A DNA stretch of 64,000 bases from Rhodanobacter sp. OK091. Lineage in GTDB: Bacteria > Pseudomonadota > Gammaproteobacteria > Xanthomonadales > Rhodanobacteraceae. Under the pieces are notes generated by a model, which made no database searches, was not told the DNA's origin, and saw only the letters and a list, made by a program, of their open reading frames with translations. Of this stretch, positions 25,429 through 48,141 are shown piece by piece. A program made the translations under genes and the position numbers. Position 1 is the first letter of the stretch. Every line of letters begins with the position of its first letter. The stretch is taken from the NCBI RefSeq assembly GCF_900142825.1, contig NZ_FRCH01000001.1, forward strand, positions 558,001 through 622,000, in the 5' to 3' direction.

Positions 25429-25511
25429 TGTGGGGGCGGCTTCAGCCGCGATGCTTTTCGATCTTGTAGCCGGGCTACAGCAAAGGCATCGCGGCTGAAG
25501 CCGCTCCCACA
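25429..25511. repeat. REP-like inverted repeat after dnaE
   Basis: A 26-base arm starting TGTGGGGGCGGCTTCAGCCG (25429-25454) is repeated inverted with one mismatch at 25486-25511. The spacer itself contains a TGTAGCC/GGCTACA stem. The GTGGGAGCGGCTTCAGCCGC core resembles REP elements seen in Xanthomonadales and pseudomonads. It lies between the convergent genes dnaE and yajD and probably also ends both transcripts. Confidence 0.75.
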
Positions 25512-34459: not shown

Positions 34460-34564
34460 GTTGGGCTTTCCTGGGATTTAGGCGGGTAGAATAAGCGGTT
34501 CGCGACCGCTGACCTTAAAAATGGGGTCACGGCGACGAAATGAAAAGAGCTGCGGAGAACGCCC

Positions 34565-34810
34565 ATGCAACCCACCGCCGGCATCTATCGTCACTACAAG
34601 GGTCAGCGCTACCGCGTGCTGGGTACCGCGCATCACAGCGAAACGCTGGAGCCGCTGGTGGTCTATCAGGCGCTCTACGGCGATCACGGCCTGTGGGTGC
34701 GCCCGGCCGCGATGTTCAGCGAAACCATCGAGCTGGACGGTGAGCCGATCGCCCGCTTCGCGCTGGAGCAGGTTGAAACAACCAGCGACGACGATACGCA
34801 TAGCAGCTGA
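34565..34810 (+). CDS. DUF1653 protein
   Basis: The 81-residue product has the DUF1653 pattern: GIYRHYKGQRYRVLGTAHHSETLEPLVVYQ, then LWVRPAAMFSETI. It is a small SH3-like beta protein of unknown function. GGAG lies 7 nt before the ATG. It is divergent from pmbA and precedes yjgA by 43 nt on the same strand. Confidence 0.9.
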   Translation: MQPTAGIYRHYKGQRYRVLGTAHHSETLEPLVVYQALYGDHGLWVRPAAMFSETIELDGEPIARFALEQVETTSDDDTHSS

Positions 34811-34853
34811 TCACGCACCGCTGACCCACGCACTACAACTGGAATTGAAACCC

Positions 34854-35408
34854 GTGAGCCCGAGCCGCAGCCGCAACCAACACGAACTCGACGAAGAGGA
34901 TTACGGCCCCAGCCGCACCCAGCAGCGCCGCGAGGCACTCGCCGTGCTGGTGTTGGCTCAGCAACTGGTCGATCTGCAACCGAGCCGGCTGGCCAAGCTC
35001 GAACTGCCCGACGACGTGCGCCACGAGATCGACGTCACCCGCCGCATCACCTCGCATGGCGCTAAGAAGCGCCAGCTCGCGTTCCTCGCCAAGGTGATGC
35101 GCCGCTACGGCGAAGAAGACTTCGCCGCCGTGCGCGCCGAACTCGGCGAGAACCGCGAGAAGCAGCGCCAGGAAAACGCGGCGATGCACCGCCTCGAAGC
35201 GATGCGCGATCGTCTGATCGCCGAGGACGAGGGCGCGCTGTCGGAATTGATCGCCGAGCATCCGCAGGTTGATCGGCAGCATCTGCGGTCGCTGGTGCGG
35301 CAGGCGCGTCTGGAAAAGGAAGTCCCGAACAAGCCGCCAAGGGCGTATCGGGAGATTTTTCAGTTGTTGAAGGATCTGGGCAAGGCGGGCGATTCGGCCG
35401 AGGGCTGA
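34854..35408 (+). CDS. yjgA: Ribosome-associated protein YjgA (DUF615)
   Basis: The 184-residue product is close to E. coli YjgA/DarP (183), which is found with 50S assembly intermediates. It is highly charged and helical, with PSRTQQRREALAVLVLAQQL near residue 15, the central ITSHGAKKRQLAFLAKVMRR near 65 and HLRSLVRQARLEKE near 145. The GTG at 34854 is chosen by homology with a GGA about 10 nt upstream. yjgA-pmbA adjacency is conserved in gammaproteobacteria, but here the two are divergent around the DUF1653 gene. Confidence 0.94.
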   Translation: MSPSRSRNQHELDEEDYGPSRTQQRREALAVLVLAQQLVDLQPSRLAKLELPDDVRHEIDVTRRITSHGAKKRQLAFLAKVMRRYGEEDFAAVRAELGENREKQRQENAAMHRLEAMRDRLIAEDEGALSELIAEHPQVDRQHLRSLVRQARLEKEVPNKPPRAYREIFQLLKDLGKAGDSAEG

Positions 35409-35440
35409 GCGATTCGCGACACTTTGCGCGACGCGCGCCT

Positions 35441-35462
35441 GTGGGAGCGCACTCTGTGCGCG
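35441..35462. repeat. REP-like hairpin after yjgA
   Basis: GTGGGAGCGCACTCTGTGCGC folds with stem GCGCAC/GTGCGC and a TCT loop. The GTGGGAGCG head resembles the REP-like element after dnaE. Confidence 0.5.
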
Positions 35463-35506
35463 GTACTCTTACTCGTCCCAGCGAAGACTTGCAGACTCTT
35501 CCAGAG

Positions 35507-35788
35507 TCGTCATTCCGGCGAAAGCCGGAATCGCTTCTGCACTCTGGCATCAGAACTGAAGAGCTTTCACCCTCCTTCGGAGGGCGAGGCACTTCTCTTT
35601 TGCTTGTCCAAAGAGAAAGTGACTCTGTCGCCAAAGGCGAGCGAACGCTCTTTGCTCTAACCAAACAGAAAGGGCAAGAGCATCGCCCGCGAGCGGGCTC
35701 CTACAAAAAGAACCCACGACGCAAGTGACTCGGTTGCCGCAGGCAGACCAAAGCGCAGAAGCGATTCCGGCCTTCGCCGGAATGACGA
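35507..35788. repeat. Gene-free repeat block bounded by 34-bp inverted repeats (MITE-like)
   Basis: The block of 282 bases begins with a 34-base sequence (35507-35540, TCGTCATTCCGGCG...) that recurs inverted at 35755-35788 with one difference. Each end contains its own hairpin ATTCCGGC/GCCGGAAT. The inside carries GGAGGGCGAG..CTTCTCTTTTGCTTGTCC and later CGCCAAAGGCGAGCGAA and CAAGAGCATCGCCCGCGAGC. All three have close matches in the larger repeat block at 45393-46070. The whole gap 35409-35840 between convergent yjgA and tldD holds no credible gene. Confidence 0.7.
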
Positions 35789-35840
35789 GCACAATAAAAA
35801 TGTGGAGTGACGGTTGCTCCGCTGGAAATGATCCCGAAGC

Positions 35841-37280
35841 TTACGAAGCCGTCCCACCCACCGTCATCGAATCAATCTTCAACGTGGGCTGACCCACGCC
35901 GACCGGCACACTCTGCCCGTCCTTGCCGCACACGCCCACACCCTCATCCAGCGCCAGATCATTGCCTATCATCGAGACGCGATTGAGCACGTCCGGGCCT
36001 GAGCCGATCAACGTGGCACCCTTGACCGGACGGGTGATTTTGCCGTCCTCGATCAAGTACGCCTCAGACGCCGAGAAGGTGAACTTGCCATTGGTGATGT
36101 CGACCTGGCCGCCGCCGAAATTCGGCGCGTATAGACCTTTCTTCACCGAGCGGATGATCTCCGCCGGATCGTGCTGGCCGGCCAGCATGTACGTGTTGGT
36201 CATGCGCGGCATCGGCAGCGAGGTGAACGACTCGCGGCGGCCATTGCCGGTCGGCGCCATGCCCATCAGGCGCGCGTTGAGCTTGTCCTGCATGTAGCCC
36301 TTGAGAATACCGTCCTCGATCAAGGTGGTGCACTCGGTCGGCGTGCCTTCGTCGTCGATGCTGAGTGAACCGCGGCGGCCTACCAAGGTGCCATCGTCGA
36401 CGATGGTGACGCCCTTGGCGGCCACTCGCTGGCCGATGCGGCCGGAGAATGCGGAGCTGCCCTTGCGGTTGAAGTCGCCTTCCAGGCCGTGGCCGATCGC
36501 CTCGTGCAGCAACACGCCGGGCCAGCCGGGGCCGAGCACCACGGTCATGCTGCCGGCTGGTGCATCGACCGCATCCAGATTCACCAGGGCCTGACGCACC
36601 GCTTCATCGGCGAATGCGAGCGCTCGCCCGTTCTCGATCAATTCGCGATAGCCATAGCGACCGCCGCCGCCAGAGTTGCCCTGCTCGCGCCGGCCGTTCT
36701 GCTCGGCGATCACCTGCACACTGAGCCGTACCAGCGGACGCACGTCGGCGGCGAGTGTGCCGTCGGAGGCGGCGATCAGGATGGTGTCGATCGTGGCAGA
36801 GAGGCTGACGATGACTTGCTTGACGCGCGGATCGCGCGAGCGCGCGTACGCATCGACCTCGCGCAGCAACGCGATCTTGTCGGGATTGGGTAGGCTCTCG
36901 ACCGGATCGATCGCCGGATACAGCTGGCGCGCGCCGTTCAATGCCAGCGGCTTGCCGGTACCGTTGCCGCCGTGGGCGATCGCGCGCGCGGCTTTCGAGG
37001 CTTCCAGCAACTGCGGCAGCACGATCTCGTCGGAGTAGGCGAAGCCGGTCTTCTCGCCGCTGATCGCGCGCACGCCCACGCCTTGCTCGATCGAATGGCT
37101 ACCGTCCTTGACGATGCCCTCCTCCAGCAGCCACGACTCGCTGCGCGAATGCTGGAAGTACAGGTCGGCCGCGTCGATCGACGGGCCCATCAACTGGGTG
37201 AATACACGGTCGAGGTCGCCGGTGGCGATGCCGCCGGGGGACAACAATTTGCTTTCGGCTAGCGTGATCAGGGAATCCAT
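35841..37280 (-). CDS. tldD: Metalloprotease TldD
   Basis: TldD is the catalytic subunit of the TldD/TldE (PmbA) protease. The 479-residue product (E. coli 481) has the zinc motif HEAIGH in [20 protein letters not shown] near residue 265. It also has GAADLYFQH-type N-terminal sequence and [20 protein letters not shown] near 310. In E. coli it lies next to yhdP and rng; here a fatty-acid-hydroxylase gene lies between tldD and yhdP. Confidence 0.97.
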
Positions 37281-37412
37281 GGGCTTTGTTCGTCTGCGGT
37301 CGATCGGTAACTATCCCACATGGGGCTGCCGCCAGCCGCTTTAAAGCCTTGGCACGGGCGCTGCGCTACCATGCGCGGCAACGCCGGCCGGCGTCTGACG
37401 TGAAGGATCACC

Positions 37413-38618
37413 ATGAGCGAACACTCCAAACGCGAGGCTGCACGCGAAGCCCTTGGCCGCGCCGTGAAGGCGCCGGTCGCGCAGACCCGCGAACTGCTGC
37501 ACGCCGACGGCGAGCTGACGCCTGGCCGCGGCATGATCACCAGCATCATCGCGCTGTCGCTGGGCTTCCTGTGCCTGCTGGCGGTACTGGCGTTCCACTT
37601 TCCGCAATACCTGACCACGCCGGATCTGCGCCACAAGTATTCGGTCGACGTGATCCGCCAGCTGCTGCTGGTCGGCTTGCTGGCGGCCGGTGGCATCTCG
37701 CTGGGCAATCTCATCCTCAATCGCCAGCGCAACCTCAACCTCGTAGCGTTCGTGCTGGTGATCGCGGCGGTGGCGCTGGGCGGTTCGCGCGTGCCGGTCG
37801 GCGAGTTCCCCGACCACACGCCGTACATCGGGCTGGACTGGTTCATCCTGGACCTGCTCGGCTCGACCCTGATCTTCGTGGTGATCGAGAAGCTGTTTCC
37901 GCTGTACAAGGGCCAGGCGATCTTCCGCAAGGAATGGCAGACCGATCTGAAGCATTTCGCGGTGAACCATTTCATCGTGGGGCTGGCGCTGCTGACGGTG
38001 AATTTCCTGCTGCACCACATGTTCGGCTGGCTGGTCAGCAGCCATTTCCAGCAGACCGTGCAGCACATCCCGTTCCTGCCGCAGCTGCTGCTGTGTGTGC
38101 TGGTGGCGGATATGGCGCAGTACTGGACGCACCGCGCGTATCACGAGGTGCCGTTCCTGTGGCGTTTCCATGCGGTACACCACAGCGTGAAGACGATGGA
38201 CTGGCTGGCCGGCTCGCGCCAGCACATGCTGGAGCTGATCTTCACCCGCGTATGCGTGCTGGCGCCGCTGTACATCCTCGGCTTCAGCGAGGCGGCAATG
38301 AACGGCTACATCCTGATCGTGGGCTTCCAGGCGGTGTTCAACCACGCCAACGTGCATCTGCCGTGGGGACCGCTCAAATACCTGATCGTGACGCCGGATT
38401 TCCACCACTGGCACCACGCTTCAGACGACGAGGCGATCGACAAGAACTACGCCGCGCACTACGCGTTTCTCGATTACCTGTTCGGCACGGCGGTGAAGTC
38501 GAGCAACAAGTTTCCGGAGCACTACGGCGTGGTCGGCGATTACATGCCGGACGGCTTCGTCAAACAGCAGCTGTTTCCTTTTCGCGGCAACCAGACGCCG
38601 GCCGAACCGTCTGCGTAA
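37413..38618 (+). CDS. Sterol desaturase/fatty acid hydroxylase superfamily membrane protein
   Basis: The 401-residue product has about six hydrophobic segments and the di-iron histidine clusters of the superfamily: THRAYHEVPFLWRFHAVHHS near residue 248-266, FNHANVHLPWG near 308 and FHHWHHASDDE near 330. It probably oxidises a lipid or carotenoid-like substrate in the membrane; the substrate cannot be read from sequence. AAGGA precedes the ATG. It is divergent from tldD and converges on yhdP, interrupting the conserved tldD-yhdP pair. Confidence 0.88.
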   Translation: MSEHSKREAAREALGRAVKAPVAQTRELLHADGELTPGRGMITSIIALSLGFLCLLAVLAFHFPQYLTTPDLRHKYSVDVIRQLLLVGLLAAGGISLGNLILNRQRNLNLVAFVLVIAAVALGGSRVPVGEFPDHTPYIGLDWFILDLLGSTLIFVVIEKLFPLYKGQAIFRKEWQTDLKHFAVNHFIVGLALLTVNFLLHHMFGWLVSSHFQQTVQHIPFLPQLLLCVLVADMAQYWTHRAYHEVPFLWRFHAVHHSVKTMDWLAGSRQHMLELIFTRVCVLAPLYILGFSEAAMNGYILIVGFQAVFNHANVHLPWGPLKYLIVTPDFHHWHHASDDEAIDKNYAAHYAFLDYLFGTAVKSSNKFPEHYGVVGDYMPDGFVKQQLFPFRGNQTPAEPSA

Positions 38619-38642
38619 TCACGCAGGTTGTAATCCTGTGGA

Positions 38643-41600
38643 TCAGGGATGGATCGAGCTGGCCGCGGCGGGCGGCTGCACGCTGCCCGCCGCGGCAGGC
38701 AGGCCGGTGGTAGGCAGACCGGTGGCGGGCGGACTCGTTGCGGGATTGAGCAGCAGCGGCGTGTTCGTGGCTCCACGCTTCTCGATCAAAGTCATCACCG
38801 GCTTGTCCCAGGTGCCGGTGACCTTGTAACGCGCGCTGGCCGCCTGATTCAGGCCCCTGCCGAGCAGGCCCTGCACGGCGAAGCCCGCCGCCGCACCGAT
38901 CGGGCCACCGACCACCGCACCGACCAGTGGCAAGCTGTTGCCGACATGCGGCACCACCCGCATTTCCTGGTCGTAATCCTTGGCGCGCAAACCGGTACGG
39001 CCGGAGATGCTGATATTCGCCGCCGGACCGGCGATCAGTAGGTTGTCGGTGGTGGCATTGCCGTTCGACAGATGAAAGTCGCCGGCAATCGAATCGAATG
39101 CCAGCCCCTTGCCGAACACGTCGCCGAAATCCAGGGTGAGCCGGCGCGGCACTTCAGCCAGCGACACCAGTCCGAGCAAGCGCCCCACGCCGGGTGATGT
39201 CGCCTCGGGAATGCGGCCGTCGTTGACGTGAATGCTGAGGGTACCGTCCATCGTGGCCAGCGATAACGCGCTGGGGCTGCCGGGCCAGGTGGCGTCGAGC
39301 TGGTCGTGCGTCTTGCCGCCATTGACGAGTCCGTCAAAACCCAACGCCCCCAGCATCGCGCCGAGATCCTCGGCTGAGAAATTGATGCGCATGTGGGTGT
39401 GGCTGTTGCTGGCGCTGCCGTTCCAGTCGCCGCTGGCGTTGATCTGCACGCGACTGGACAGCGCGCGCAGCTGCTCGATATGCATGCCGGCCGCGGTCGG
39501 CCAGGTTTCCAGCCGGGCTTCGCCGAGCTTCGAGTCACCCAGGCGCAGGTCGCCGATCCAGAGATGGAACGGCGGCAGCGCACCCGGGTTGATGCCGGTA
39601 TTGGCGGGATCGGACGCCGGCACAACCGCGGCCTTCGCACCGGCGGCCGGCGGGGTGGCTGCCGGCCAATACAACCGCTGCAATCGTGCGGTGACGCCGC
39701 GCTTGTCCAGCTCCTGGGTCGGTACACTGAAATTGCCCGCCATCGCGGCGCCATCCACATCGACGCTGAGCACGTCAGGTTGCGGCGTGGCGCGCAGTTT
39801 CAGCGCCCCCATCGGACGGCCGAACCAGCCAGCCTGATCGGTGCTGACATCGAGACTTTCCAATCCCGGGCCATTGCCACCGCTACCAGCCACCGTCTGC
39901 TGCACCCAGCCGGTGATGTCCAGGCGGCTGGCGTGACCGCGGATGCGCAGGCCGCTGGTGGGCAGCGCCTCCGGCATCTGATTGCCGAATGCCAGCGTAC
40001 CTGCCAGTGGATGCTGTGCTCCGTCGGAGAGGCGCAGGTGCCCGCGTGCCGCATCGCCCAGTCCAAATTGCAGATCGCTGCCGCCGACCGGCAGGCTCAT
40101 CGTCAGGTGCAGCGGCAGGCTCGCCACCGCCGGCTTGTCCAGCGGCGCCGGCAGGCCCAGCGTGATTCCGCTCAATGGCGAATCGACGCTGAGGGTTTGC
40201 GCCAGCGCGTCACTGCCCGGCACATGCGCGATCGTGAAACCGATGTCGAAGTCGCTGCGGCCGTCGGCCAGCTGGCCGAGCCAGTTCAGCGACGGGTAGT
40301 CCTGCACCAGTTCTGCCATGCGGTAGCTGCCCTGCAATTGCGCGGACAGCACAGTGGCCGGGTCGCTGTTGGCCGCTGCGATCGCCAGTTGCAGTTTCGA
40401 CGGCTGGCCGCGAAAGCCGGCATCCAGCGGACCGGCCTGCATGCCATGCAAGTTGAAGCGCAACGGCCCGTTGAGCTTGTCCAGCTTGAGGTTCCAGTCC
40501 GGTGCGCTGAGGTCGGCGTCCTTCAGCTGGGCGTTGCCGTCCAGCTGAGCATCCTCGGCCTTCTTCAGCGGCATACTCAGGTGAAAATCGAAGGTGCCGC
40601 TGCCATCCAGATTCAGCTTGGCCAGCGTATCGGCCTGACGCATGCCGATCGGACTCTTGCGCACGAACTCCATCAGGCTGGCGCCGCTGCCGTTACCCTG
40701 CACGCTGAGATCCAGCAGGCCCTCGCCGAAATCCGGGATCAGCGCCACCGCTTTGTCCGCCTTCACGCCCAGCGACTGGCCACCGCTGGCCTCGACCAGC
40801 ATGCCGTTGTTGATGAAGCTGGCCACCGCATTGACACCTTCCGCGTGCGGCCACTCCTTGCCGTAGTCGAGGGTCAGGTTGCTGATCACTGCACGCGCCT
40901 CGAAGCGCCCTTCGTTGTGGCGGAATGGCCAGTCCGCGAGATCGCCGCGCACCAGCACCTGCGCCTGGTCGAGACTGCCGGCCAGCAAGCCCCGATCCAG
41001 CCAGGCGATGGTGCCGGGCGACATCGAGCCTAGCGGCCAGAACAGTTTGGCCGCAGGCACATCGGCGTGGTCCAGCGTGGCGTAGAGGTCCAGGAACGGG
41101 CGGCCCTGCGCCGGCAAGATCACTTCGCCACGGGCCTGCCCGGCATACCCGGCGCCGGCAAAATCCAGCGCATCGACGCCGATATGCCAGTCGCCGTCCT
41201 GCGGCCAGAAAGCCAGCGTGCCGCCTAGTTGCGACATCACGAAGGGCTGCCGGAACGACTGCGGAAATTGCAGTGTTGTGGCCTGTGCCGGCAGCTCCAG
41301 CGACAGCGCTTCGGCGTCGCCGCGCAACTCGCCATGCAGGCTGCTCACGCCCGGCAATTTGCCGACCGCGTCGATGCCCAGATCGTTGAAGGCCACCGCG
41401 ACGGCCTGCAACCCGTCGGCACGATTCCAGCGCAGCGCGACGCGGCTGAGGTCGCCACGCGGGTGTCCTCCACCCAGCCATTGCGCCAGCGCCGGCGCCA
41501 GCGCCGGTTTCAACGCCAGCCAAGGCAGCAGCGGCGCCAGCTGCAGCTCGCGCGCGGCGACGCCCATACTGGCCTGCGCGCTGCCAGGCTGATGCAGGCT

Positions 41601-42554
41601 GAGCGCCATAGCGCTGCCGTCGTCGCCCGCCCAGCGCACGTCGTAACCATCGCGGCTCTGGCGCACGCCGGCCAGTCCATGCAAAGACGCCACACTGGCG
41701 GCGCCACCCGTGGGCGCAGTTACCGTCAGCGTATCCAGGTCGAAGCGGATCAGGCTGCTGGTCAGCGTGCCCTCGCGCCAGTCCAGCCATGCGCTCAAGC
41801 GGCCATGGCCCTGGTTGGCCGTGTAGCCGCCCGGATCGATGCCGTTCAGCAACGGCTTCAGATCCACATCATCGACGCCCACCCACACCTGCCCGGCGCT
41901 ACCGTCCTCGCGGAAGCGACCGGCCGTGTGCACGGCGGCATTCACGCCACCGCGCTGCAACACGCCGCCGAAGCGGATCTGGCCGCCTTGGTGGCTGAGG
42001 CGCAGTTGCCTGGACAGCAAGGTGTATTGCTTGTTCAACGTGGCTTCGGTGACCACCACGCGCAGGTCTTCCAGCCACAGGTCCACCGACATCTGGCCCA
42101 GCGACAGCGGCTGCCGATTGCCGCCGCCGGCGACGCCGATGCCATTGACGTGCCAGCCGCCGGCATCGTGCAGCAGGTCCAACTGCAGGCCGCGTACATG
42201 CAGGTTGAGCAGGTGCCGCGACGGCAGCAGCCAGCCGCCGAAATCGAGCTTCAATTCGGACTCGGGCAACTGCAACGCCGCACCGCTCTCGCCTGCCGCC
42301 GCACCGATCGTCACGCCGTGCATCACGAACAGCGGGCCCGATGGCGTCCAGCGACCTTCCATCGAAGCGAAGCTGACCGGCCGCTGCAGCCGCTGGCTGA
42401 GCTGTGCGGCCACCCACGCCGGATGCCGCGCCAGCAGCGGCAGCAGCAACTGGGTCAGCGCCACCAGCACGGCGAACAGGATCACCGTTACGCCGACGGT
42501 CCAGCCCAGCGCGCGGGCGCAACGATGCAGCCGTCGCTGCCACAGCGCGTTCAC
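38643..42554 (-). CDS. yhdP: YhdP family AsmA-like envelope protein
   Basis: YhdP is a large AsmA-like protein that helps move phospholipids to the outer membrane. The 1303-residue product (E. coli 1266) has one N-terminal transmembrane segment (GWTVGVTVILFAVLVAL), a long periplasmic beta-rich DUF3971 region and a C-terminal AsmA-like domain. That domain contains DLGAMLGALGFDGLVNGG, LSIHVNDGRIPEATSPGVGR and NISISGRTGLRAKDYDQE. The start is GTG at 42554. It follows rng by 21 nt on the same strand and is likely co-transcribed with it. Confidence 0.93.
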   Translation of the reverse strand: MNALWQRRLHRCARALGWTVGVTVILFAVLVALTQLLLPLLARHPAWVAAQLSQRLQRPVSFASMEGRWTPSGPLFVMHGVTIGAAAGESGAALQLPESELKLDFGGWLLPSRHLLNLHVRGLQLDLLHDAGGWHVNGIGVAGGGNRQPLSLGQMSVDLWLEDLRVVVTEATLNKQYTLLSRQLRLSHQGGQIRFGGVLQRGGVNAAVHTAGRFREDGSAGQVWVGVDDVDLKPLLNGIDPGGYTANQGHGRLSAWLDWREGTLTSSLIRFDLDTLTVTAPTGGAASVASLHGLAGVRQSRDGYDVRWAGDDGSAMALSLHQPGSAQASMGVAARELQLAPLLPWLALKPALAPALAQWLGGGHPRGDLSRVALRWNRADGLQAVAVAFNDLGIDAVGKLPGVSSLHGELRGDAEALSLELPAQATTLQFPQSFRQPFVMSQLGGTLAFWPQDGDWHIGVDALDFAGAGYAGQARGEVILPAQGRPFLDLYATLDHADVPAAKLFWPLGSMSPGTIAWLDRGLLAGSLDQAQVLVRGDLADWPFRHNEGRFEARAVISNLTLDYGKEWPHAEGVNAVASFINNGMLVEASGGQSLGVKADKAVALIPDFGEGLLDLSVQGNGSGASLMEFVRKSPIGMRQADTLAKLNLDGSGTFDFHLSMPLKKAEDAQLDGNAQLKDADLSAPDWNLKLDKLNGPLRFNLHGMQAGPLDAGFRGQPSKLQLAIAAANSDPATVLSAQLQGSYRMAELVQDYPSLNWLGQLADGRSDFDIGFTIAHVPGSDALAQTLSVDSPLSGITLGLPAPLDKPAVASLPLHLTMSLPVGGSDLQFGLGDAARGHLRLSDGAQHPLAGTLAFGNQMPEALPTSGLRIRGHASRLDITGWVQQTVAGSGGNGPGLESLDVSTDQAGWFGRPMGALKLRATPQPDVLSVDVDGAAMAGNFSVPTQELDKRGVTARLQRLYWPAATPPAAGAKAAVVPASDPANTGINPGALPPFHLWIGDLRLGDSKLGEARLETWPTAAGMHIEQLRALSSRVQINASGDWNGSASNSHTHMRINFSAEDLGAMLGALGFDGLVNGGKTHDQLDATWPGSPSALSLATMDGTLSIHVNDGRIPEATSPGVGRLLGLVSLAEVPRRLTLDFGDVFGKGLAFDSIAGDFHLSNGNATTDNLLIAGPAANISISGRTGLRAKDYDQEMRVVPHVGNSLPLVGAVVGGPIGAAAGFAVQGLLGRGLNQAASARYKVTGTWDKPVMTLIEKRGATNTPLLLNPATSPPATGLPTTGLPAAAGSVQPPAAASSIHP

Positions 42555-42575
42555 GCGTGGCAGCCCAGGCCGGAT

Positions 42576-44057
42576 TTAAAGCAAAACAACATCGAACTGT
42601 TCCTGCGAATAATGTTCTTCAGCCTGAAAGCGTATGCTTTTGGAGATGAACTCTTCCAGTTCGGCCACCGCGCTGGACTCTTCCTCCAGGATGCGGTTGA
42701 CCACGGCGGGGTTCGCCATCACCAGCAGCTTCTGCGCGTTGAACTGGCGCACCGCGCGGGTGATCTCGCGGAAGATCTCGTAGGTCACCGTTTCGGCGGT
42801 CTTCAGCACGCCACGGCCGTTGCAGGTCGCACACGGCTCGCATAGCTGGCGCGCCAGGCTTTCGGTGGTGCGCTTGCGGGTCATCTCGACCAGGCCCAGC
42901 GCCGACATCGGATACACCGTGGTCTTGGCGTAGTCGCGCGCCAGCCCCTTGTTCAACATGCGCAGCACCTGGCGCTTGTGTTCCTCATCGTTCATGTCGA
43001 TGAAGTCGATGATGATGATGCCGCCCAGATTGCGCAGCCGCAGCTGGCGCGCCGCCGCCTGCGCCGCTTCGAGGTTGGTGCGGTAGACCGTCTCCTCCAG
43101 GTTGCGCGAGCCCAGATAGGCGCCGGTGTTGACGTCGATCGTGGTCATCGCCTCGGTCTGGTCGACGATCAGATAGCCGCCGGATTTCAGCGGCACCTCC
43201 TTCTTCAGCGCGCGCTGCATCTCGTCCTCGACCCCGTACAGGTCGAAGATCGGCCGCTCGCCGTCGTAATGCTCGATACGGTCGTCCAGGCTCGGCATGA
43301 ACTTGTGCACGAACTTGACCACCTTCTCGAAGGTGGCACGCGAGTCGATCCGCACCTTCTCGATGTCGTCGTTGAGCATGTCGCGCAAGCTGCGCAGCGG
43401 CAGCGACAGCTCCTCGTAGACGCGCTCGCCCACCTTGGCCTTGGCGATGTTCTCCTGCACCACCCGCCATACCTTGGTGAGGTAGGCGACGTCGAATGCC
43501 AGCGATTCGGCGCTCTGGCCCTCGGCGTTGGTGCGCACGATGTAGCCCATGGGATTCTCGCCGATCAGCGGCGTCAGCACGTCGCGCAGCCGCTGGCGTT
43601 CGGCCTCGTCCTCGATCCGCGCCGAGATGCCCAGGGTGCGTGCGTATGGCAACAGCACCAGGTAGCGCGAGGGAATCGACAGGTGCGCCGACAGCCGCGC
43701 ACCCTTGGTGCTGATCGGATCCTTGACCACCTGCACCACGATCTCCTGGCCTTCGTGCACCAGTTCGCTGATCGAGGGAATGTGGCCGTTGCCGTTCGAT
43801 TCCACGCCTTCGACGGCTGCAGCCGGAGCCGGTCGCACGATGTCCGAGGCGTGCAGGAACGCCGCGCGGTCCAGCCCGATCTCCACGAACACCGCCTGCA
43901 TGCCGGGCATCACCCGCTGTACCCGGCCTTTGTAGACGTTGCCGACATAGCCGCGCCTGGAGGCCCGTTCGACGTGTACCTCCTGCAGCATGCCGTTCTC
44001 GACCACGCCCACCCGCGTCTCGCGCGGAGTCACGTTGATCAGGATTTCTTCACTCAC
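42576..44057 (-). CDS. rng: Ribonuclease G
   Basis: RNase G is an RNase E-family endonuclease that matures the 5' end of 16S rRNA and starts decay of some mRNAs. The 493-residue product has the S1-like domain (RRGYVGNVYKGRVQRVMPGM) and the catalytic Asp residues in GGIIIIDFIDMNDEEHK near residue 340. The zinc-link CxxCNGRG motif (CATCNGRG) is near 410. E. coli RNase G has 489 residues. The start is GTG at 44057, with GGGGAG 6 nt upstream. Confidence 0.97.
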   Translation of the reverse strand: MSEEILINVTPRETRVGVVENGMLQEVHVERASRRGYVGNVYKGRVQRVMPGMQAVFVEIGLDRAAFLHASDIVRPAPAAAVEGVESNGNGHIPSISELVHEGQEIVVQVVKDPISTKGARLSAHLSIPSRYLVLLPYARTLGISARIEDEAERQRLRDVLTPLIGENPMGYIVRTNAEGQSAESLAFDVAYLTKVWRVVQENIAKAKVGERVYEELSLPLRSLRDMLNDDIEKVRIDSRATFEKVVKFVHKFMPSLDDRIEHYDGERPIFDLYGVEDEMQRALKKEVPLKSGGYLIVDQTEAMTTIDVNTGAYLGSRNLEETVYRTNLEAAQAAARQLRLRNLGGIIIIDFIDMNDEEHKRQVLRMLNKGLARDYAKTTVYPMSALGLVEMTRKRTTESLARQLCEPCATCNGRGVLKTAETVTYEIFREITRAVRQFNAQKLLVMANPAVVNRILEEESSAVAELEEFISKSIRFQAEEHYSQEQFDVVLL

Positions 44058-44192
44058 CGCATACTCCCCGAATTGACCATCTTTATAACGGCTGCAGGCG
44101 CGGCCTGTCGATGAGCCATTTCATGGGAACTGCAATCCGGCTCCCGATATCGCAAAATGCTGCTGATTGCCGCCTCGGCAGGAGTTCGCAAC

Positions 44193-44885
44193 ATGACTAC
44201 CCCGATTCTGCTGGCCTGGAGCGGCGGCAAGGACTGCCTGCTGGCGCTGCAACGCCTGCTTGCCGATCCGCAGTGGCAGGTGGTCGGCCTGCTCACCACG
44301 GTCAACCGCAACTACCAGCGCGTGGCGATGCACGGCGTGCAGCATGAGGTGCTGCGGGCGCAGACTTCGGCGCTGGGCCTGCCGCTGGTCGAGGTGATGC
44401 TGGACTGGCCCGGCAGCAACGAAGCCTATGAGCAGGCCCACGCGCAGGGGCTGGTCGAGGCGCGCATGCGCTGGCCGGGCATCCGCCATTGCGCATTCGG
44501 CGACCTGTTCCTGGAAGACGTGCGCGACTACCGCGTACGCCAGCTGGGCCGCGAGAACTGGCGCGCGGTATTTCCGTTATGGGGCGAGGACACCACCACG
44601 CTGTCGCGGCGCTTTGTCGCCGAAGGCCATCGCGCGATGCTGTGTTGCGTCGACACCCAGCAGCTCGACGCCGAGTATTGCGGCCGCGCTTATGACGCCG
44701 CCTTGCTCGATGCGCTGCCGGCCGGAGTCGATCCCTGCGGTGAGCGCGGCGAATTCCATACTTTGAGCTATGCCGGTCCGCTGTTCAGTCAACCGCTCAA
44801 GCTGCGCCGCGGCGAATCGGTGCTGCGCGATGGACGTTTCCAGTTCACCGATTTCCTGCTCGACGAACATGCCGCGAAAAGTTGA
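44193..44885 (+). CDS. Dph6/DUF71-like ATP pyrophosphatase-fold protein
   Basis: The 230-residue product has the N-type ATP-pyrophosphatase PP-loop LLAWSGGKDCLLALQRL at residues 6-22 and the family segments IRHCAFGDLFLEDVRDYR near 100 and DPCGERGEFHTLSYAGPLF near 185. It belongs with the Dph6/MJ0570-related family. Eukaryotic Dph6 amidates diphthine on EF2; bacteria lack that pathway, so the substrate here is unknown. AGGAG lies 8 nt before ATG 44193. It overlaps the glycosylase gene by 17 nt. Confidence 0.85.
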   Translation: MTTPILLAWSGGKDCLLALQRLLADPQWQVVGLLTTVNRNYQRVAMHGVQHEVLRAQTSALGLPLVEVMLDWPGSNEAYEQAHAQGLVEARMRWPGIRHCAFGDLFLEDVRDYRVRQLGRENWRAVFPLWGEDTTTLSRRFVAEGHRAMLCCVDTQQLDAEYCGRAYDAALLDALPAGVDPCGERGEFHTLSYAGPLFSQPLKLRRGESVLRDGRFQFTDFLLDEHAAKS

Positions 44886-45378
44886 GAGCCACATCCTGCC
44901 CGACGTGCTGCAACCCGCACTCAAGCTGGTGTTCTGCGGCACCGCCGCCGGCAAACGTTCGGCCGCCGAACGCGCCTACTACGCCCATCCCGGCAACTTG
45001 TTCTGGCGTGCGCTATTCGAGGCCGGGCTGACCCCGCGTCAGTTGGCGCCGCCCGAATTTCCGCAATTGCCCGACTACGGCATCGGCCTCACCGACCTGG
45101 CCAAACGCCACAGCGGCAACGATAGCGAGCTGCCGCGAGACGCGTTCGACGTGCCAGCCTTGATTGGCAAGATCGAACGCCATCAACCACGCCTGCTCGC
45201 GTTCACGAGCAAGAACGCAGCACGAGCCGCGCTCGGTCATGCGGCGCCCTACGGCCTGCAGGACGAAACCATCGGCGACACGCAGCTGTTCGTGCTGCCG
45301 TCGCCTTCGGGACAGGCGCGTGGGCATTGGGATCTCGGACCATGGCTGGCGCTGAGCGAGCTTTACCGGGCACGGTAG
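44869..45378 (+). CDS. mug: Mug-family mismatch-specific DNA glycosylase
   Basis: The 169-residue product has the Mug/TDG layout: KLVFCGTAAGKRSAAERAYY near residue 20, HPGNLFWRAL near 42, and the insertion-loop motif VLPSPSGQARGHW near 148. E. coli Mug removes uracil and ethenocytosine opposite guanine. The E. coli catalytic motif GINPG is GTAAG here, so the key Asn is replaced by Ala, and NPSG is SPSG. Substrate range may differ. The gene overlaps the Dph6-like gene by 17 nt and is translated in another frame. Confidence 0.85.
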   Translation: MPRKVESHILPDVLQPALKLVFCGTAAGKRSAAERAYYAHPGNLFWRALFEAGLTPRQLAPPEFPQLPDYGIGLTDLAKRHSGNDSELPRDAFDVPALIGKIERHQPRLLAFTSKNAARAALGHAAPYGLQDETIGDTQLFVLPSPSGQARGHWDLGPWLALSELYRAR

Positions 45379-45392
45379 GGGTTCGCTAATGA

Positions 45393-46070
45393 GCGATGCT
45401 CTTGTTTGTTCCTGCATCCAGAGCAAAAAGCTTTCGTCCTCCTGCGGAGGGCGAGTTACTTCTCTTTTGCTTGTCCAAAAGAGAAGTAACCAAGAGAAAA
45501 CGACACCCCGCTTACGCGCTTTGCGGGCATCCCTGCCCGCAAAGTCCGCGGGTGGGTTACGGGGTTTGTCGACAGCACATCCCGTGCTGACGCCAAACTG
45601 GCCGGCATCCCTGCCGGCCACCCTGCGGGCTGTTCCTCCACCCACCCGCCGCTGCAGAGGGGCCCCGGGTAGAGCAGCGGGCCATCCTGGCCCGCACTCG
45701 GTGAACAGCCGAAGCGAAGCGGCGCCCTGGCTGTTGACCTAGCTCTTCTGAAAAGTACGCGCAGGACGCGCGTTGCTCTACCCGGGGCCCCTGTGCGGCG
45801 GTGAGACGGGGACGACAGGCCGCGCAGCGGGAGTCGACAGGGAGGTCGACTCCTTTTCGCCAGGGCAGGAGCCCTGTCGAAAAGCCCGGCCCCGGCTCAC
45901 GAACTTGCCGGGCAGGAGCCCGGCAAGCGCGTAAGCGGGGTGGCCTTTCTCTTTGGTTACCTTTCTCTTTGGCCACACAAAGAGAAAGTAACTCGGGCGC
46001 CAAAGGCGCACGAAAGCTCTTGCTTCGATCAACCCACCTAGAGCCAAGAGCATCGCCCGCTAGCGGGCTC
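45393..46070. repeat. Nested long inverted-repeat block (~660 bp), gene-free
   Basis: Arms pair across the block: GCGATGCTCTTG (45393-45404) with CAAGAGCATCGC (46045-46056); ACCCCGCTTACGCGC (45505-45519) with GCGCGTAAGCGGGGT (45927-45941); and AGGGGCCCCGGGTAGAGCA (45658-45676) with its perfect complement at 45774-45792. Local hairpins fill the spaces, for example around GCGGGCATCCCTGCCCGC and GTCGAC. Open frames here are repeat-derived and have no recognisable protein. The ends match the 35.5-kb block. It separates mug from the convergent cytochrome genes (gap 45379-46093). Confidence 0.75.
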
Positions 46071-46093
46071 CTACACAAAGAGCCCCACCAGCA

Positions 46094-47383
46094 TCAATCG
46101 ATCGGCGTATGCCGATACCGGCTGACATCCTCCGGCCGCACCACCGACGCGTTGTTTGTCCACGAGCGTCGCATGTAGCTGACCACGGCCGACACGTCGC
46201 TGTCGCTCAGCTGCTGGGCGAATGGCGGCATCGAATACGGCCGCGGATTGGCCGCGGTCACCGGCGCAAAACCTCCCAGCAAAACCATCCGGGTCGCGTT
46301 GAGGCCGGTCGGTTCGGTCACCGAAGAGTTGCCGTCAAGCGGCGGATACGCCCCGGCGACACCGCGGCCATCCTTGCCGTGACAATCCGCGCAGTGCTGC
46401 GTGTAGATTTTCTCGCCTTGCTGCACGATCGTCCTGGCATTGAACAGCTGCGGCTCTTCAGGCGGCAGCATGCGCGGCGGCAGCGACTGCAGATAGATGG
46501 CGACCGCCTGCAGGTCGTCGTCACTCATGTGCTGAGTGCTGGTCGCAACCACATCGGCCATCGGACCGAACGCCACGCCCTTGGCCGACCGCCCGGTTTT
46601 CAGCAGGTCGACGATGTCCTGGGCGCTCCAGCCCTGCAGGCCGCCGTTCTGCTGTGTGCTCAGATCCGGCGCGTACCAGTTCTGCATGGGAATCTGACCA
46701 CCGGTCAGATGCCGATCGCCGGATGTCCCACCTAGCGAATCGCGCGCCGCATGACATTCGTTGCAGTGGCCCAGTCCCTGCACCAGGTAGGCACCGCGAT
46801 TCCACTGCACCGACTGTGCCGGATCAGGCTTGAACACGCCTTCCCTGAAGTACAGCGCACGCCAGGCAGTCAGGCTCTTGCGGACGCTGTACGGGAAATT
46901 CAGCGCCAGCGATGGAGCCGGCTGGTGCACCGGCGCCAGCGATTGCAGGTAGGCAAAGATCGCCAGCGCATCGTCATGCGTCACCTTGGTGTACGAGGTG
47001 TACGAGAACGCCGGATACAGCAGTTCGCCGTGCCTACCCTTGCCGACATGCAGTGCCTGCCAGAAATCCTCGAAGCTCCAGTCGCCCAGACCGGTGTTGC
47101 GATCGGGTGTGATGTTCGGCACCGGGATATTGCCGAACGGCGTGGCCAGCGAACGACCACCGGCGAGGCGTGCGCCGCCTTGCGCGGTATGACAGCCGGC
47201 GCAGTCGCCGAGCGTGGTCAGGTACTCGCCTCGCGCGATCAAGGCGGGATCATGCAACGTCGCTGCGGTCACCGCACTCTTGGCCGGTGATGTCGGTCGA
47301 TGATCGCCACCGACAAACCACCAGCCCAGCAGCAGCACGACCAGTACCACGATCAGCAGCAAGCATCGACGCAGCCATTTCAT
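46094..47383 (-). CDS. Membrane-anchored triheme cytochrome c
   Basis: The 429-residue product has an N-terminal transmembrane anchor (CLLLIVVLVVLLLGWWFVGG) and three haem c sites: CAGCHTAQ near residue 60, CNECHAAR near 210 and CADCHGKDG near 335. This three-haem layout with PNITPDRNTGLGDWS and FWQALHVGKGRHGELLYPAF is that of the cytochrome subunits of membrane alcohol, gluconate and aldehyde dehydrogenases. No dehydrogenase gene is adjacent, so the electron donor is unknown. The ATG overlaps the stop of the upstream cytochrome gene (ATGA). Confidence 0.9.
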   Translation of the reverse strand: MKWLRRCLLLIVVLVVLLLGWWFVGGDHRPTSPAKSAVTAATLHDPALIARGEYLTTLGDCAGCHTAQGGARLAGGRSLATPFGNIPVPNITPDRNTGLGDWSFEDFWQALHVGKGRHGELLYPAFSYTSYTKVTHDDALAIFAYLQSLAPVHQPAPSLALNFPYSVRKSLTAWRALYFREGVFKPDPAQSVQWNRGAYLVQGLGHCNECHAARDSLGGTSGDRHLTGGQIPMQNWYAPDLSTQQNGGLQGWSAQDIVDLLKTGRSAKGVAFGPMADVVATSTQHMSDDDLQAVAIYLQSLPPRMLPPEEPQLFNARTIVQQGEKIYTQHCADCHGKDGRGVAGAYPPLDGNSSVTEPTGLNATRMVLLGGFAPVTAANPRPYSMPPFAQQLSDSDVSAVVSYMRRSWTNNASVVRPEDVSRYRHTPID

Positions 47384-48141
47384 GCGCCATCTCCGGTCGC
47401 ACCCAGGACACCGCAAGGCAGCGGCGGCGTTACCGAACCGGCCGCCTGCGCATGCGTGTCGGCCGGCAACGGGCGACTGGCCAGCGATGCAGCCACCGCG
47501 GTGATGTCCGAGTTGCTGAGCCGGTTGGCCACCAACGCCATGCAGTCCGGCGCCACGGTGGCGCGGGTGTGCGTGCGCCAGGAGCCCAGCTGCGCACTGA
47601 GATAGTCGTATGGCAGACCGACCAGCCCTGGCGTGGACGGTTCAACGCCGGTGAGCTGGCTGCCATGGCAGCTGGCGCAGGCGGGAATCTTGCGGGCGGG
47701 GTCGCCCTTGGTGATCAGCTGGTCGCCTCGCTGCAAGGTCGCTGCGGAAACCGACGGCACCGGCGAATGGCTGTAAGGCACTTGCTGCGCGGAAAAATAG
47801 TCGGCGATTTCCTGCATGTACGCCGGGCTCAGCTGGCGGACGGTGTATTCCATCGGCGCGTACTTGCGCAGGCCATTCTGGAAATCCTGCATCTGTCGCG
47901 CCAGATAGACGGCCGGCTTGCCCGCCAGGCGCGGAAAATATCCGCTGCCCGGAGTGCCTTCGCCATGTACGCCATGGCAGGTGGTGCAGGCGGCGATGCG
48001 CTGCTGCAACGTGTCAGGTGGCATAGGAGATATCGGCGGTGCATCGGCGGCATGGCTGGCGGCGCCGAACAGCGTGGCAACCACAAACAACACCGCGGCA
48101 CCGAACGGCTTGGCAAAGCGCAGGCTGATGTTCGTGTTCAT
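47380..48141 (-). CDS. Diheme cytochrome c4-like protein
   Basis: The 253-residue product has a signal peptide (AAVLFVVATLFGAASHA) and two haem sites, CTTCHGVHG near residue 52 and CASCHGSQL near 152, each followed by a c4-type fold with FPRLAGKPAVYLARQM. It is a periplasmic electron carrier. Its stop codon overlaps the start of the triheme cytochrome gene by ATGA, so the two are translationally coupled and probably pass electrons to each other or to a terminal oxidase. Confidence 0.9.
   Translation of the reverse strand: MNTNISLRFAKPFGAAVLFVVATLFGAASHAADAPPISPMPPDTLQQRIAACTTCHGVHGEGTPGSGYFPRLAGKPAVYLARQMQDFQNGLRKYAPMEYTVRQLSPAYMQEIADYFSAQQVPYSHSPVPSVSAATLQRGDQLITKGDPARKIPACASCHGSQLTGVEPSTPGLVGLPYDYLSAQLGSWRTHTRATVAPDCMALVANRLSNSDITAVAASLASRPLPADTHAQAAGSVTPPLPCGVLGATGDGA

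What the first reader, a model, noticed from the sequence alone, without database searches (positions are those of the whole stretch)
45393..46070. Nested ~660-bp inverted-repeat block without genes
At least three pairs of arms (12, 15 and 19 bases, all exact) nest around a centre near 45725, with further local hairpins. The outer parts are related to the 35.5-kb block, which looks like a compact form lacking the middle. Spurious ORFs from this family could easily be annotated as hypothetical proteins. I recall similar sequence in other Xanthomonadales genomes but cannot verify it. Possible roles are a mobile non-coding element, a structured RNA, a topological or nucleoid site, or a bidirectional terminator.
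Basis: partly seen in the sequence, partly recalled or inferred. Interest (0 to 1): 0.7.

Follow-up and report, generated by a model that had tools for sequence, protein, structure and literature searches.

The report
Repeated inverted pair of structured RNAs
This gene-free block is one of many copies of a mobile-looking, inverted pair of folded-RNA units whose hairpin tips match the kind bound by the global regulator CsrA, so it may be a regulatory RNA spread as a repeat rather than junk DNA.

Summary
In detail: exact arms of 12, 18 and 19 bases nest around 45,724, and the genome (probably a Rhodanobacter) holds 17 near-full copies. But it is not one giant hairpin. It is an inverted heterodimer (A+B) of a ~280-nt unit that also occurs singly.

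Read from the centre outwards, each unit folds into four hairpins, three in a multibranch domain, plus a 3' hairpin whose loop pairs back (pseudoknot). Stems change in compensation while the loops stay mostly A(N)GGA, the CsrA/RsmA motif. Two of these hairpins and the pseudoknot persist far outside the genus. A covariance model finds the core in 47 of 200 genomes of the order and 31 of 369 of the class.

Some relatives score above threshold for Rfam RF01731 (TwoAYGGAY), an RNA of unproven function predicted in print to bind CsrA; the window copy does not. Here the dimer lies between inverted GTAG REPs, like an oversized REPIN, and is missing at the same site in relatives.

Shown: repetition, covariation, fixed loops, site polymorphism. 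Inferred: transcription, CsrA binding, transposition. Against: no promoter signal, and single units sit so that the upstream gene would read the other strand. Verdict: new variant of a known kind.

The parts
45375..45399 (+). left REP-like end (GTAG outward, imperfect stem); its TAG is the stop codon of the upstream gene
   Evidence: sequence; alignment of copies
45426..45705 (-). unit A, ~280 nt, outward strand is minus
   Evidence: profile hit L001 1547-1826; type A by diagnostic motif
45455..45490 (-). unit A pseudoknot hairpin (15-bp exact stem)
45518..45545 (-). unit A hairpin H4, GGA in loop on minus strand
45573..45589 (-). unit A hairpin H3, GGA in loop on minus strand
45599..45620 (-). 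unit A hairpin H2, GGA in loop on minus strand
45677..45695 (-). unit A hairpin H1, GGA in loop on minus strand
45706..45743 (.). centre between the two units (24-309 bp in 72 dimers)
45744..46021 (+). unit B, ~280 nt, outward strand is plus
   Evidence: profile hit L001 1865-2142; type B
45757..45773 (+). unit B hairpin H1, loop AGGAC
45829..45854 (+). unit B hairpin H2, loop AGGGAG
45861..45876 (+). unit B hairpin H3, loop AGGA
45904..45927 (+). unit B hairpin H4, loop AGGA
45961..45988 (+). unit B pseudoknot hairpin; its loop pairs with the GTGGCC just upstream
46050..46074 (-). right REP, GTAG outward, perfect stem
   Evidence: sequence; motif scan
35559..35652 (.). compact relative: outer ends of two units fused, without the GGA-loop hairpins
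   Evidence: profile hits in L027; sequence

Best explanation
The block is a non-autonomous repeat: an inverted heterodimer of a structured-RNA unit related to Rfam TwoAYGGAY, lying in this genome between two inverted GTAG REPs and so probably copied and inserted like an oversized REPIN, here at the GTAG that holds a gene's stop codon. When a unit is transcribed from the centre outwards, the RNA folds into four hairpins with A(N)GGA tips (three of them in a multibranch domain) and a pseudoknotted 3' hairpin. The likely action is that the dimeric regulator CsrA/RsmA (one gene found in this genome) binds pairs of these tips, so that dispersed copies titrate CsrA or bring it to the transcripts they sit in. 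Shown: repetition, site polymorphism, covariation, fixed A(N)GGA loops, pseudoknot, link to TwoAYGGAY through intermediates. Inferred: transcription, CsrA binding, movement by a REP transposase. My estimates: structured repeat with REP-bounded copies in this genome 0.9; function as RNA 0.65; CsrA binding 0.5.
For: Copies: 17 near-full in the genome. Units: 136 distinct near-full units aligned, stems vary but stay paired. Covariation: 45 genus units, 98.2% of cells paired, score 0.478 against 0.152 shuffled and 0.044-0.082 slid; 55 far units, 94.0% paired, 46 of 46 pairs with double changes, 0.601 against 0.130 and 0.054-0.077 (alignment fitted to the model). Loops on the outward strand: GGA in 87, 131, 120 and 128 of 136 for H1-H4; in far units A(N)GGA in H2 55 of 55 and H3 53 of 55. 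Perfect hairpins with 3-5-nt loops: GGA or TCC in 139 of 178 inside units, 8 of 75 outside. Pseudoknot: mechanical test met in 31 of 37 far units against 6 of 740 shuffles. Known relative: RF01731 above its cut-off in L246 and L252, same strand and place as my model; Gardner and Eldai proposed that TwoAYGGAY binds CsrA (PMC4333381, passages). CsrA gene present. G-U pairs exceed A-C on the GGA strand, 45 to 8 and 46 to 14, 25 to 5 in hairpins H2-H4 alone. Mobility: none of 22 orthologous loci has a unit at the window's site, with 11-21 bp between the genes in G021, G009 and G003.
Against: No transcript data. No promoter-like signal above shuffles upstream of 58 single units or in the centres of the own dimers. 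In the genus, a gene at the outer end of a single unit points at it in 34 cases and away in 4 (20 of 58 without a call), so read-through would give UCC loops, not GGA. H1 has lost GGA in 49 of 136 units and H4 is mostly not A(N)GGA outside the genus, 3 of 19 in the order and 10 of 17 in other orders. My model contains the GGA loops, which favours finding them, and its structure was predicted on the GGA strand, which favours G-U there. G-U intermediates are rare, which would also fit repair or exchange of palindromes at DNA level. The window copy is not found by RF01731. No transposase gene with matching REPs was found in this genome.
Confidence: 0.5

Rival explanations
1. A 3'-end RNA element read in the opposite (inward) sense as part of the upstream gene's transcript: a terminator, processing or stability structure with UCC loops.
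For: A gene at the outer end of single units points at the unit, 34 to 4; only 4 of 50 dimers lie between divergent genes.
Against: G-U over A-C counts favour the other strand; the Rfam relative is modelled on the outward strand; outside the genus the bias is weak, 20 to 12; no U-run at the outer end (read by eye).
Confidence: 0.15
2. A purely DNA-level mobile repeat: the hairpins serve transposition or copying as single-stranded DNA (REP-like), loops being recognised by a transposase, with no RNA function.
For: REP-like ends on the own copies; insertion at a GTAG with empty sites elsewhere; G-U intermediates rare; no promoter.
Against: Many relatives' dimers lack REPs: 15 of 26 have none by a strict motif. 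Genus genomes without a detected Y1 transposase still have units, for example G009, G013, G014. The A(N)GGA pattern with a variable N fits CsrA closely, and a DNA role for it is ad hoc.
Confidence: 0.3
3. A decaying relic: old insertions without present function, kept similar by exchange between copies.
For: Fragments and the compact form exist; module-like variation of hairpins; no promoter.
Against: Covariation with fixed loops and pseudoknot across the class is not expected of neutral relics.
Confidence: 0.05

Closest known systems
TwoAYGGAY RNA (Rfam RF01731, clan CL00106)
   Same: Two neighbouring hairpins with A(N)GGA tips inside a closing stem; same strand and place in intermediates L246 and L252
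   Different: The window copy does not reach the Rfam model. Here there are two further GGA hairpins, a conserved 3' pseudoknot hairpin beyond the Rfam match, an inverted A+B dimer, high copy number and REP flanks
REPIN / BIME (GTAG-type REP dimers)
   Same: Inverted REPs with GTAG outward at both ends; insertion beside a gene's GTAG stop; plain REPIN at the same site in G010
   Different: Spacer of ~650 bp with structured units, against 20-100 bp in most dimers (PMC3733652, passages); no matching RAYT found in this genome; relatives' copies often lack REPs
CsrB/RsmY/RsmZ-type CsrA-sequestering RNAs
   Same: Several A(N)GGA loops at hairpin tips
   Different: No such Rfam family matched above threshold; dispersed repeat rather than a single gene; binding and expression untested
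RsmU of Xanthomonas campestris (PMC7694677, passages)
   Same: An RsmA-binding RNA with GGA motifs from the same order
   Different: Processed from one mRNA's 3'-UTR; not reported there as a repeat; no sequence comparison made here

Membership tests
TwoAYGGAY (RF01731) | Score at or above Rfam's gathering score (43 bits) | tested here: not met
   No match in window 34500-47500 at E <= 1, none in L001 or L042 at E <= 10, none in the own genome at E <= 1 (stricter filters)
TwoAYGGAY (RF01731) | Two neighbouring hairpins with A(N)GGA tips within a closing stem | tested here: met
   H2 and H3 in the window copy and in 131 and 120 of 136 units as GGA
TwoAYGGAY (RF01731) | Homology to accepted members through intermediates | tested here: met
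   RF01731 and my model R1 hit the same place and strand in L246 and L252 and in 8 of the 10 loci that RF01731 brought in (7 at E <= 0.002, L273 at 0.15; in L265 only elsewhere in the locus, in L270 not at all)
TwoAYGGAY (RF01731) | Tandem G-A pairs in one stem (reported in PMC4333381) | not tested
   Not examined
REPIN / BIME | Inverted REPs, GTAG outward, at both ends | tested here: met
   Window copy: right REP perfect, left imperfect. Own dimers: strict motif at both ends in 11 of 18, one end in 7; REP-like at both ends of all 17 full copies by eye
REPIN / BIME | Short spacer (20-100 bp in most families) | tested here: not met
   About 650 bp between the REPs
REPIN / BIME | Cognate RAYT gene flanked by the same REPs | tested here: inconclusive
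   Own genome: one Y1_Tnp without REPs nearby. In the genus 3 of the 29 relatives' Y1_Tnp loci examined have such REPs; in L232 they lie on both sides and are of the second class seen at some own copies
CsrA-sequestering RNA (CsrB/RsmZ type) | Several A(N)GGA hairpins | tested here: met
   All eight main loops of the window copy contain GGA
CsrA-sequestering RNA (CsrB/RsmZ type) | Match to a known Rfam family of this kind | tested here: not met
   None above threshold; a sub-threshold RsmW match, 26.8 bits against 52, in the far relative L240
CsrA-sequestering RNA (CsrB/RsmZ type) | Binds CsrA and is expressed | not testable with these tools
   Needs experiments
MITE | Terminal inverted repeats with target-site duplication and a transposase with matching ends | not tested
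   Terminal repeats exist; duplications were not examined

The most novel reading that the evidence does not exclude
A mobile CsrA sponge: a CsrA-binding RNA that has become a dispersed, REP-borne repeat, so that a genome's dose of CsrA-binding sites, and the transcripts that carry them, are set by transposition and by flipping of the dimer.
Probability: 0.3. Interest if true: 0.82.

Novelty: new variant of a known kind. Interest (0 to 1): 0.62.

Why it matters
TwoAYGGAY was listed in 2010 as a candidate RNA, and I found no proof of its function in the passages I read. These data tie it to a larger element with a conserved pseudoknot, present in many copies in Xanthomonadales and scattered through the class, and show that in Rhodanobacter it behaves as a dispersed, site-polymorphic repeat. 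If it binds CsrA, titration of a global regulator would be tied to a mobile repeat. It is also a source of spurious ORFs: four ORFs overlapping this block match no NCBIfam family.

Tried and rejected
One giant hairpin: rejected as the main reading, because single units are common (61 single units and 72 dimers, which includes redundant loci and units cut by contig ends) and the best-supported pairs are local. Pairing between halves A and B was not formally tested. Protein-coding: no match for three ORFs in Pfam or four in NCBIfam. Own promoter: best scores upstream of 58 single units averaged 7.2 against 7.5 in shuffles; only a sigma-70-type consensus was scanned. Strand from G-U pairs in the first, larger alignment: set aside, because several near-constant G-U columns were forced by the predicted fold; the counts lean to the GGA strand. 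Plasmid carriage: one record with a 64-bp partial match. Rfam at gathering thresholds over 20 loci gave a tRNA and two TwoAYGGAY matches, both TwoAYGGAY in L246; most loci with the element match no family.

Literature: nine searches. A search for four core sequence strings found one paper, on an archaeal enzyme. The listings of these searches showed no paper describing this element in Rhodanobacter; the library holds open-licence papers only. Papers seen as passages: PMC3733652, PMC7694677, PMC2864571, PMC4333381, PMC11661157, PMC11701678; all others as listings. The RsmA consensus CANGGAYG was recalled first; one search lists papers containing the string, which I did not read. That REPINs are moved by RAYT transposases is general knowledge plus listing-level reading.

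Full report
Host and copies. The window lies in a 4.42-Mb genome (G000, 11 contigs). A conserved pattern from the block matches 84 stretches in the named genome collection; the titles are nearly all Rhodanobacter, with some MAGs named only Proteobacteria or Lysobacteraceae bacterium and one Dyella. The host is most likely a Rhodanobacter (inference). The own genome has 17 near-full copies at 84-100% identity, a dimer with a long centre (L022), three single units (L023-L025) and smaller pieces.

Anatomy. Aligned in one orientation, the copies show two inverted halves, each a version of one ~280-nt unit. A profile of the unit finds 255 hits in 139 loci, some of them overlapping. By a diagnostic motif, distinct dimers are A+B in 44 of 48 cases, B+B in 2, unclear in 2; distinct single units are B in 45 of 50, A in 1, unclear in 4. 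The centre spans 24 to 309 bp in 72 dimers. In the window copy all eight main hairpin loops contain GGA on the strand read from the centre outwards.

Structure. In 136 distinct genus units the stems differ widely but stay complementary, while GGA stays in the loops of H1-H4 in 87, 131, 120 and 128 of 136. On 45 units below 90% identity, RNAalifold gives 46 pairs, 30 with double changes, at -82.5 kcal/mol; covariation is 0.478 against 0.152 in shuffles and at most 0.082 when slid. On 55 units from other genera and orders it is 0.601 against 0.130 and at most 0.077 (this alignment was fitted to the model). There the H2 loop is A(N)GGA in 55 of 55 and H3 in 53 of 55, but H4 only in 3 of 19 (other genera of the order) and 10 of 17 (other orders); H1 lies outside the model. 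The model holds the loops, so some selection for GGA is built in. The loop of the 3' hairpin pairs with a stretch just upstream, and both sides change together, for example GGCCAC/GTGGCC, GAGCAC/GTGCTC, GGGCA/TGCCC. A mechanical test for this is met in 31 of 37 far units (one per locus, 4 of 41 loci left out) against 6 of 740 shuffles; a few of the 31, such as L237 and L239, may be other hairpins.

Distribution. A plain DNA search of 60 genomes found 35 of 35 genus relatives (one, G035, with a single weak match) and 5 of 24 genomes of other families, weakly. With model R1, 47 of 200 genomes of the order match at E <= 0.001: 8 of 8 of the genus, 20 of 26 of other genera of the family, and 19 from three other families. 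In the class 31 of 369 match, 29 of them outside the order in 21 families.

Known relative. At Rfam's own threshold the far relatives L246 and L252 are TwoAYGGAY, at the place and strand of R1's hits. Of ten loci that RF01731 brought in from the order, R1 hits eight at the same place and strand, seven at E <= 0.002 and L273 at 0.15; in L265 it hits only elsewhere and in L270 not at all. Weinberg et al. 2010 mark TwoAYGGAY as probably RNA and probably not cis-regulatory (PMC2864571, passages). Gardner and Eldai proposed from its hairpins that it binds CsrA (PMC4333381, passages). The window copy itself fails the RF01731 model, so I call it a relative and not a member. The genome has one CsrA gene match.

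Mobility. At the window's site the block starts at the GTAG that holds the stop codon of a uracil-glycosylase-like gene (PF03167) and ends before a convergent cytochrome c gene (PF00034). Among 22 orthologous loci in genus relatives none has a unit there; the cytochrome gene was found nearby in 13 and not in 9. In G021, G009 and G003 only 11, 15 and 21 bp separate the genes; G010 has a plain REPIN at the spot and G019 a REPIN with a small core like the element's ends. Five orthologues without a REP (L158, L159, L162, L166, L168) carry GTAG at the stop, which suggests a target. Two further own sites look empty elsewhere: flanks 92 bp apart for L017 in L104 and 210 bp for L002 in L128, with ~100 bp trimmed on each side. 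Four own sites (L007, L010, L012, L017) are occupied in other species; in 9 comparisons the dimer lies in the opposite orientation in 7 and the same in 2 (7 of the 16 pairs examined were dropped because the flanks did not border the element, and three comparisons include a unit of unclear type). That could be inversion or independent insertion. REP ends are a feature of this genome's copies (strict motif at both ends in 11 of 18, one end in 7); among relatives' dimers 15 have none, 8 one and 3 both. REPs are thus a vehicle in some species, not part of the unit.

Against the RNA reading. There is no promoter-like signal and no expression data. In the genus, a gene at the outer end of single units points at the unit in 34 cases and away in 4, with 20 of 58 uncalled (gene calls by a simple codon score), so read-through would give the other strand. 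Outside the genus the bias is weak, 20 to 12 with 5 uncalled, and that count includes some paired units of the opposite arrangement. G-U over A-C counts favour the GGA strand: 45 to 8, 46 to 14, and 25 to 5 in H2-H4 alone. But the structure was predicted on that strand, and G-U intermediates are rare overall, which would also fit DNA-level repair or exchange of palindromes.

Verdict. A real, repeated, structured element: new as an extended, dimeric, REP-carried relative of a known candidate RNA. CsrA binding is the best single hypothesis and is directly testable.

Noticed in passing
window 35507-35788: The compact relative and a single REP lie inside another inverted repeat (CATTCCGGCGAAAGCCGGAATCGC-type arms): nested repeat families.
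   Followed up: no
window 25430-25510: A separate pair of inverted REPs of the second class (GTGGGAGCGGCTTCAGCCGCGATG).
   Followed up: no
L232, Y1 transposase gene at 1501-1812: A Y1 transposase gene flanked on both sides by REPs of the second class seen at some ends in this genome: a candidate RAYT for that class in another Rhodanobacter.
   Followed up: partly
L012 against L052, L126, L191; L010 against L056, L139; L007 against L055; L017 against L107: At shared sites the A+B dimer lies in opposite orientations in different species: in-place inversion or repeated insertion.
   Followed up: partly
L202, L204, L235, L246, L271: In these other genera the two units face the other way round (outward strands converge), unlike the Rhodanobacter dimers.
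   Followed up: no
5' flanks of single units, e.g. L104, L123, L150: Many single units are preceded by a hairpin (GCCACCGCGCAGCGGTGGC type) and a motif TGGCCGAACTGAGACATTCG, perhaps another repeat.
   Followed up: no
centres of L065, L079, L089, L132 and of L063, L066: Long centres hold other dispersed inverted repeats (CCTGAGCGTAGGC...-type and CCCTCTCCCC...-type).
   Followed up: no
L097, L098, L107, L126, L142, L144: Some units carry a ~68-bp insert at profile position 52.
   Followed up: no
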